Of a DNA stretch of 64,000 nt, positions 39,766 through 57,622 are shown one piece after another (the stretch's first letter is position 1; the number at the start of each line of letters is the position of its first letter). The notes beneath the pieces were generated by a model. The model was not told the origin of the DNA, made no database searches, and was given only the letters and a program-made list of their open reading frames with translations. The DNA comes from Candidatus Woesearchaeota archaeon (GTDB lineage Archaea; Nanobdellota; Nanobdellia; Woesearchaeales; GW2011-AR9), in NCBI GenBank assembly GCA_018696595.1, contig JABHQW010000008.1, positions 204,522-268,521 of the forward strand, read 5' to 3'. The position numbers and the translations under genes were made by a program.

Positions 39766-39886
39766 AATATAGCACCGAACTCACTCTTTTGTTTGTGGTT
39801 CTTATTGTGGTCCCTCCCGGATGGAGCATCCCCAACCACAGACTAATGCCCATTTAATTATATCGTTCGTAACTTGGTGCTATATT
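39766..39886 (-). ncRNA. Candidate structured RNA: 121-nt hairpin with GGGGATGCTCCATCCGGGA motif
   Basis: AATATAGCACC(39766-39776)/GGTGCTATATT(39876-39886); GAAC/GTTC; inner TGTGGT/ACCACA-type helix around the motif. Confidence 0.45.
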
Positions 39887-39895
39887 AATAATAAT

Positions 39896-40117
39896 TTACC
39901 CTAAATAAAACCCTAACAGTTTCATTCTGTATAAAGCGAATCCTAACCACAACACCAGAAACAGATAGAAAATACTAAAGAATTTATTCAATGGAAACCA
40001 ATTAGATGTCCAGTGACTAACTTTTTGATGTAGTTTTCCCTCAGTAAAACTCAAAAAGATATAGCTCAAACAATCTATTAATATCAAGTACCAAATAATT
40101 CCTTCTGCGTATATCAT
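39896..40117 (-). CDS. Small membrane protein, unknown
   Basis: Hydrophobic ORF, DPANN-style. Confidence 0.4.
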   Translation of the reverse strand: MIYAEGIIWYLILIDCLSYIFLSFTEGKLHQKVSHWTSNWFPLNKFFSIFYLFLVLWLGFALYRMKLLGFYLG

Positions 40118-40148
40118 AAAGAAAAAGAAAATTTAAAAATATATAAAC

Positions 40149-57417: not shown

Positions 57418-57428
57418 GTTGTAGTTAT

Positions 57429-57570
57429 TATAAAACCCTCACCATTGCCATAAGGTCAAAATTCTAACAAATTTAACATTTAGTGCGTTACGAGGGGACG
57501 CTCCATCCGGGAACGTAGCACTATCAAAAACCAAAACGAGAATTTTGAAGGCAAAGAAGAGGGTTTTATA
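57429..57570 (+). ncRNA. Candidate structured RNA: 142-nt hairpin with GGGGACGCTCCATCCGGGA motif
   Basis: TATAAAACCCTC/GAGGGTTTTATA (12 bp), TTGCC/GGCAA, CAAAATTCT/AGAATTTTG, TAGTGC/GCACTA nested helices. Confidence 0.55.
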
Positions 57571-57622
57571 TTTACCTTGAAAAACAAATTATTTATATAG
57601 CTAAACCTTTTTATTTATAGTA

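What the first reader, a model, noticed from the sequence alone, without database searches (positions are those of the whole stretch)
57429..57570. Candidate structured RNA B: 142-nt hairpin with four nested helices
Seen: TATAAAACCCTC/GAGGGTTTTATA (12 bp), TTGCC/GGCAA (5), CAAAATTCT/AGAATTTTG (9), TAGTGC/GCACTA (6), capped by GGGGACGCTCCATCCGGGA. All helices are perfectly complementary and in nested order, separated by short internal loops, which is very unlikely by chance. Lies between a THUMP methyltransferase and an M50-like operon. The apical motif is conserved with element A while the stems differ in sequence, as expected of a functional RNA family.
Basis: partly seen in the sequence, partly recalled or inferred. 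Interest (0 to 1): 0.8.

Follow-up and report, generated by a model that had tools for sequence, protein, structure and literature searches.

The report
Decayed mobile hairpin element (MITE), Woesearchaeota
The hairpin is real, but it is an old copy of a small jumping DNA element found in dozens of copies across one group of tiny archaea; its unusual point is that the elements' folded centre is preserved pair by pair while the sequence of its stems changes.

Summary
In detail: nested perfect helices at 57429-57570 (RNA z -4.3; as DNA about -5.3 on either strand). The interpretation as a stand-alone structured RNA is not supported. The hairpin belongs to a family with 13 copies in this genome, almost restricted to one order of Woesearchaeota/Nanoarchaeota (89 of 359 genomes of the order). 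In 42 of 100 relatives the hairpin ends are terminal inverted repeats flanked by 8- or 9-bp target-site duplications (chimeric control 0.2). Both other genomes of the genus keep the same gene order with about 50 bp where B lies: an empty site. B is therefore a decayed miniature transposon (MITE), about 57423-57576; its own duplication is no longer visible. What remains remarkable is a multi-helix core with strong covariation, shared by elements with different ends and different duplication lengths, conserved while loops diverge, yet with almost no G-U pairs (0.65%, equal to A-C at 0.59%; tRNA control 8.8%) and no orientation bias toward genes. This points to selection on, or template-switch repair of, folded DNA rather than a transcript. 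One end class has an IS5-like autonomous partner; none was found for the other.

The parts
57423..57576 (+). Element B: decayed miniature inverted-repeat transposable element (about 154 bp)
   Evidence: Ends match the TIR GGCTAATATGAAACCCT of L016 (perfect TIR, 9-bp TSD) at 13/17 (left) and 14/17 (right); absent from the same place in both congeners; covariance model hit 122.6 bits.
57423..57440 (+). Left terminal inverted repeat, degenerate (AGTTATTATAAAACCCTC)
57559..57576 (-). Right terminal inverted repeat, degenerate (GGTAAATATAAAACCCTC on the - strand)
57445..57449 (+). Inner part of helix 1, 5' arm (TTGCC; 3' arm 57550-57554)
57450..57456 (+). Conserved asymmetric internal loop (ATAAGGT type; one A opposite)
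   Evidence: alignment A1
57457..57465 (+). Helix 2, 5' arm (CAAAATTCT; 3' arm 57539-57547); its TCRAA/TTYGA core covaries
57481..57486 (+). Helix 3, 5' arm (TAGTGC; 3' arm 57518-57523); covaries across the family
57490..57492 (+). Helix 4, 5' arm (ACG; 3' arm 57514-57516)
57494..57512 (+). Apical motif GGGGACGCTCCATCCGGGA: GGGGNNGY strand, then helix 5 (57502-57504/57510-57512) closing N + TMCG
   Evidence: the T-A/C-G pair at 57502/57512 covaries through the family
39766..39886 (-). Element A: second copy in the window, type 1 core, same apical motif
   Evidence: the interval between PCNA and the MarR-like gene is about 56 bp in both congeners

Best explanation
[quoted passage not shown] Shown: relatives carry terminal inverted repeats with 8-bp (GTA... 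ends) or 9-bp (GG... ends) target-site duplications; the same folded core sits inside both end classes; the B site is empty in both congeners; one GG end class is shared with an autonomous IS5-like transposase element. Inferred: the elements are moved in trans by DDE transposases that recognise the ends. Also inferred, with less certainty (about 0.5): the core is kept because the element must fold as DNA (a hairpin on a single strand during replication or transposition, or a cruciform), since pairing is strictly Watson-Crick on both strands alike, inner helices stay nearly unchanged while loops diverge, and orientation toward genes is random. In B the ends and the duplication have decayed and no PF01609 transposase was found in the genome, so B is probably a relic without present mobility.
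For: TIR (13 bp, at most 2 mismatches) plus 8/9-bp TSD (at most 1 mismatch) in 42 of 100 relatives, 0.2 expected from chimeras of different elements; TSD length follows end class. Empty site in G015 and G016 with gyrA - methyltransferase - next gene conserved. B's ends match the TIR class of L016 at 13/17 and 14/17. More than 30 near-identical dispersed copies in G001. Autonomous element: L074, 888 bp, TIR GGCTCTGTCCTAAA, IS5-like DDE transposase. Core covariation: 93.2% of cells paired, 27 of 34 pairs with double changes, 0 of 500 shuffles, slides at most 42% paired. DNA-level pairing: inner helices 1642 Watson-Crick, 11 G-U, 10 A-C in 91 distinct copies, against 26 G-U of 296 pairs in tRNAs of the same loci, p about 3e-14. 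Among close copies loops differ by 19% but inner pairs changed in 4 of 399. Orientation random: upstream gene + 45, - 50. No PF01609 match in the own genome.
Against: B itself has no recognisable target-site duplication (left GTAGGTTGT, right TTGAAAAAC), and its ends match the TIR class only at 76-82%. No autonomous partner was found for the GTA-end class or for the exact GGCTAATATGAAACC ends. The apical N + TMCG loop (T, C and G fixed, second position free) is what an RNA UNCG loop would show. G-U scarcity can also come from template switching and is not proof of selection on DNA. Inner helices of B are intact although its ends decayed, which could mean a retained role.
Confidence: 0.85

Rival explanations
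1. A functional structured RNA carried by a transposon: the core is transcribed and folds as RNA, for example to bind a protein, and the transposon ends only spread it.
For: Strong covariation in five helices; UNCG-like loop with free second position; conserved asymmetric loops.
Against: G-U 0.65% and equal to A-C 0.59%, against 8.8% G-U in tRNA; random orientation toward genes; the elements begin and end at their inverted repeats, so room for an own upstream promoter is small (inference); no Rfam family.
Confidence: 0.2
2. No function of the fold: the arms are kept complementary by template switching between arms during DNA replication (quasipalindrome correction), and the loops by common descent.
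For: Concerted Watson-Crick changes without G-U intermediates; the mechanism is documented for hairpins of RNA genes (PMC8794818).
Against: It should also erase asymmetric internal loops, which are conserved; inner helices are far more conserved than loops among close copies (4 of 399 pairs changed at 19% loop divergence); the 19-nt motif is kept across many genera and core types.
Confidence: 0.25
3. A REP/REPIN-like or IS200/IS605-like hairpin moved by an HUH Y1 transposase acting on single-stranded DNA.
For: Hairpin form and extragenic spread resemble REPINs (PMC3116915); one Y1 gene lies next to an element (G209:C97).
Against: Inverted ends with 8/9-bp duplications, which Y1 enzymes are not known to make; Y1 not found in the own genome nor in element-carrying G023, G029, G032, G039, G044, G264, G309.
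Confidence: 0.04

Closest known systems
Prokaryotic MITEs (review PMC10969869; e.g. Correia elements, Chunjie, Sulfolobus MITEs)
   Same: Short, non-coding, intergenic, multicopy, inverted ends, target-site duplications, ends shared with an autonomous IS in one class, stable stem-loop.
   Different: A multi-helix core with a fixed 19-nt loop motif is conserved by covariation across elements with different ends and different duplication lengths; the passages of the review that I read do not describe such a core.
IS5-type insertion sequences
   Same: L074 carries an IS5-like DDE transposase and the GGCTCTGTCCTAAA ends of one class of these elements, whose duplications are 9 bp.
   Different: L074 has no trace of the folded core; no IS5 partner was found for the GTA-end class.
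REPINs / REP elements with RAYT (PMC3116915)
   Same: Small, extragenic, hairpin-forming, many copies.
   Different: REPINs are linked to Y1 tyrosine transposases; here there are inverted ends with 8/9-bp duplications and Y1 is often absent.
Covariation-supported structured RNA families of Rfam
   Same: Nested helices, compensatory changes, conserved loops.
   Different: Almost no G-U pairs, mobile, no orientation bias, no Rfam match.

Membership tests
MITE | Terminal inverted repeats | tested here: met
   Relatives. B: 12-bp perfect arms plus degenerate ends, 13/17 and 14/17 to the L016 TIR.
MITE | Target-site duplication, family level | tested here: met
   42 of 100 elements, control 0.2.
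MITE | Target-site duplication, this copy (B) | tested here: not met
   GTAGGTTGT versus TTGAAAAAC. Duplications fade with age (PMC10969869), so this lowers the claim for B alone, which rests on its ends, family and empty site.
MITE | Empty site in close relatives | tested here: met
   G015 and G016 lack B with gene order conserved.
MITE | Non-coding, under 500 bp, dispersed multicopy | tested here: met
   121-172 bp; 13 copies in the own genome, more than 30 in G001.
MITE | Ends shared with an autonomous transposase element | tested here: inconclusive
   Met for GGCTCTGTCCTAAA ends (L074); not found for GTA ends or B's own end class.
Structured non-coding RNA | Covarying helices | tested here: met
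Structured non-coding RNA | G-U pairs accepted, A-C not | tested here: not met
   11 G-U, 10 A-C of 1696 cells.
Structured non-coding RNA | Transcript | not testable with these tools
   No expression data.
Structured non-coding RNA | Match to a known RNA family | tested here: not met
REPIN / IS200-IS605 | Y1 HUH transposase in element-carrying genomes | tested here: not met
   Not found in the own genome and seven other element-carrying genomes.
TnpB guide (omega) RNA | TnpB in element-carrying genomes | tested here: not met
   PF07282 in 1 of 30 genomes.

The most novel reading that the evidence does not exclude
A transposon family in which the folded DNA strand itself is the conserved, recognised part: one structured core reused with different transposase ends (8-bp and 9-bp duplication classes), so that a host or transposition factor reading a DNA hairpin, not the end sequence alone, decides which miniature elements spread.
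Probability: 0.3. Interest if true: 0.8.

Novelty: new variant of a known kind. Interest (0 to 1): 0.5.

Why it matters
It is a clear example of a strongly covarying multi-helix structure that is very probably not an RNA gene: covariation alone would have passed it as one, and the near absence of G-U pairs with equal A-C counts is what tells it apart. It also describes a large mobile-element family of DPANN archaea for which I found no report, and raises a testable question: why a folded core is shared by miniature transposons with unrelated ends.

Tried and rejected
Rfam at gathering and relaxed thresholds: only two tRNAs in the window and a chance plant miRNA hit. RNAalifold's first apical pairing (GGGG with YYCC): rejected because those pairs vary on one side only while YCC/GGR covaries on both. 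TnpB guide RNA and Y1-based movement: transposases mostly absent. Autonomous partner of the GTA-end elements: looked for by end-sequence pairs, PF01609 hits and flanking ORFs, none found. Viral source: no exact core match in viral contigs. Own target-site duplication of B: not recoverable. Literature: no paper found on such elements in Woesearchaeota or DPANN, within an open-licence library only. H/ACA, C/D and K-turn readings were considered from memory only and not pursued: no ACA box beside the stem, and the ends are transposon ends.

Full report
Observation. The sequence at 57429-57570 contains the four nested helices as described, with no mismatch. It folds far better than dinucleotide shuffles as RNA (z -4.31, 0 of 200) and as DNA on either strand (z -5.27 and -5.34). 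The apical 19-mer is found at B and, on the other strand, at element A (39815-39833), against 0.01 expected.

Family. The motif GGGGNNGYYCCNTMCGGGR (up to 1 mismatch) has 13 copies in the own genome (1.19 Mb) and occurs in 32 of 51 genomes of the same family; the reversed control pattern gives one match in all of them. An exact pattern of the type 2 core found 47 stretches in a collection of one genome for each of 85,488 species: nearly all are labelled Nanoarchaeota or Woesearchaeota, a few only 'archaeon', one 'Euryarchaeota archaeon SM23-78', none bacterial. A covariance model from 34 type 2 copies found 89 of 359 genomes of the order; in a sample of 380 genomes across the phylum, 50 of 51 positive genomes were of the same order and one of the same class. 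Exact core patterns gave nothing in viral contigs. The copies fall into at least three core types that share the apical motif: type 1 (element A), type 2 (element B) and a third with GACAA...GUC flanks.

Mobility. For 100 relatives with 150-bp flanks I asked for inverted ends of 13 bp (at most 2 mismatches) directly flanked by an 8- or 9-bp direct repeat (at most 1 mismatch). 42 passed; joining left and right halves of different elements gave 0.2 on average. Duplication length follows end type with few exceptions: GG... ends (GGCTCTGTCCTAAA, GGCTCTGTAGAAA, GGCTAATATGAAA, GGCTTCATCC) give 9 bp, GTA... ends (GTATGTGCATAGC, GTATTTGTTTAGC, GTAATACTTTAG) give 8 bp. G001 holds more than 30 near-identical dispersed copies, several at contig ends. 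The same type 2 core sits inside both end classes (L035 and L119 with GGCTCTGT ends, most others with GTAT ends). In G022 an 888-bp element with GGCTCTGTCCTAAA ends encodes an IS5-like DDE transposase (Pfam DDE_Tnp_1, E 9e-11; NCBIfam IS5 family, E 3e-36, below its cut-off) and contains no core. No partner was found for GTA ends.

B at its own site. gyrA, the THUMP methyltransferase and the downstream gene keep their order in both other genomes of the genus (75% and 74% identity for the methyltransferase), where the gap is about 50 bp without B. Element A's interval shows the same: about 56 bp in both congeners against about 460 bp here. B's ends match the L016 end class GGCTAATATGAAACCCT at 13/17 and 14/17; the own-genome copy L039 keeps more of it. 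B's duplication is not recognisable. The own genome has no PF01609 match. So B is an insertion of this lineage, or less likely a precise loss in both congeners, and is no longer a complete mobile element.

Structure under constraint. On alignment A1, 93.2% of pair cells form standard pairs, 27 of 34 pairs show changes on both sides, no shuffle of 500 reaches the observed covariation and slid controls pair at most 42%. Apical helices 3, 4 and 5 are paired in 100% of cells. Among close copies whose loops differ by 19%, inner helix pairs changed in only 4 of 399 cells; at divergences of 0.15-0.40 double changes outnumber single ones 5- to 9-fold. So the inner helices are conserved as sequence at short distance and as pairing at long distance.

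RNA or DNA. In 91 distinct model hits the inner helices hold 1642 Watson-Crick, 11 G-U and 10 A-C cells. A selected RNA helix accepts G-U and rejects A-C (established knowledge); 13 tRNAs from the same loci have 26 G-U in 296 pairs (ARAGORN's own structures; p about 3e-14). Equal, tiny numbers of G-U and A-C mean that neither strand is preferred, as expected for folded DNA, for both strands folding, or for arms corrected by template switching (mechanism: PMC8794818). Orientation toward flanking genes is random (upstream + 45, - 50; codirectional, divergent and convergent neighbours all common) and 95 of 110 elements are intergenic by a crude ORF caller. Against this, the loop N-T-[A/C]-C-G with T, C and G fixed resembles an RNA UNCG loop. 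I weigh DNA-level constraint about 0.5, template switching 0.25, RNA 0.2.

Limits. The tRNA control is small. Model-fitted alignments lean toward the structure, though this should not create the G-U/A-C symmetry. Cells count sequences, not independent events. The ORF caller is crude. E-values of the model are rough. Genomes are mostly metagenome assemblies. No expression data exist here.

Known kinds. By ends, duplications, size and copy number the family is a MITE; the individual copy B lacks its duplication. It is not a REPIN or IS200/IS605 element nor a TnpB guide RNA, and it matches no Rfam family. The new aspect is the conserved folded core shared across unrelated ends.

Noticed in passing
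L106:5538-5804, L159:1045-1306, L122:7595-7860, L197:207-472, L198:241-504, L207:103-368: Twin elements: two cores back to back in opposite orientation, often a type 2 and a third-type core, in several cases inside one pair of GTAATACTTYAGC ends (about 265-300 bp).
   Followed up: partly
window 39896-40132 (-): A 78-aa membrane-like ORF lies directly upstream of element A and is missing together with it from both congeners between PCNA and the MarR-like gene.
   Followed up: partly
type 2 cores, in window 57500-57519: CCCTACGGGGACGCAGC of many type 2 cores differs by one inserted base from the archaeal 16S rRNA primer-site segment CCCTACGGGGYGCAGC (recalled from memory). Probably chance plus a shared UNCG-type hairpin; not tested.
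   Followed up: no
G209:C97:911-1252 and 1364-1501 (L237): A Y1 (HUH) transposase gene lies about 110 bp from one element; the only such neighbour noticed.
   Followed up: no
G032:C11:95703-95832: One element carries two different ends, GTATTTGTTTAGC on one side and GTATGTGCATAGC on the other, suggesting recombination between subfamilies.
   Followed up: no
L062:1501-1663, L076:1501-1697: Elements with GGCTCTGTCCTAAA ends whose apical motif is degenerate (GGGGAAGCCCTATGGGAA on the - strand), showing that the core can drift in some lineages.
   Followed up: partly
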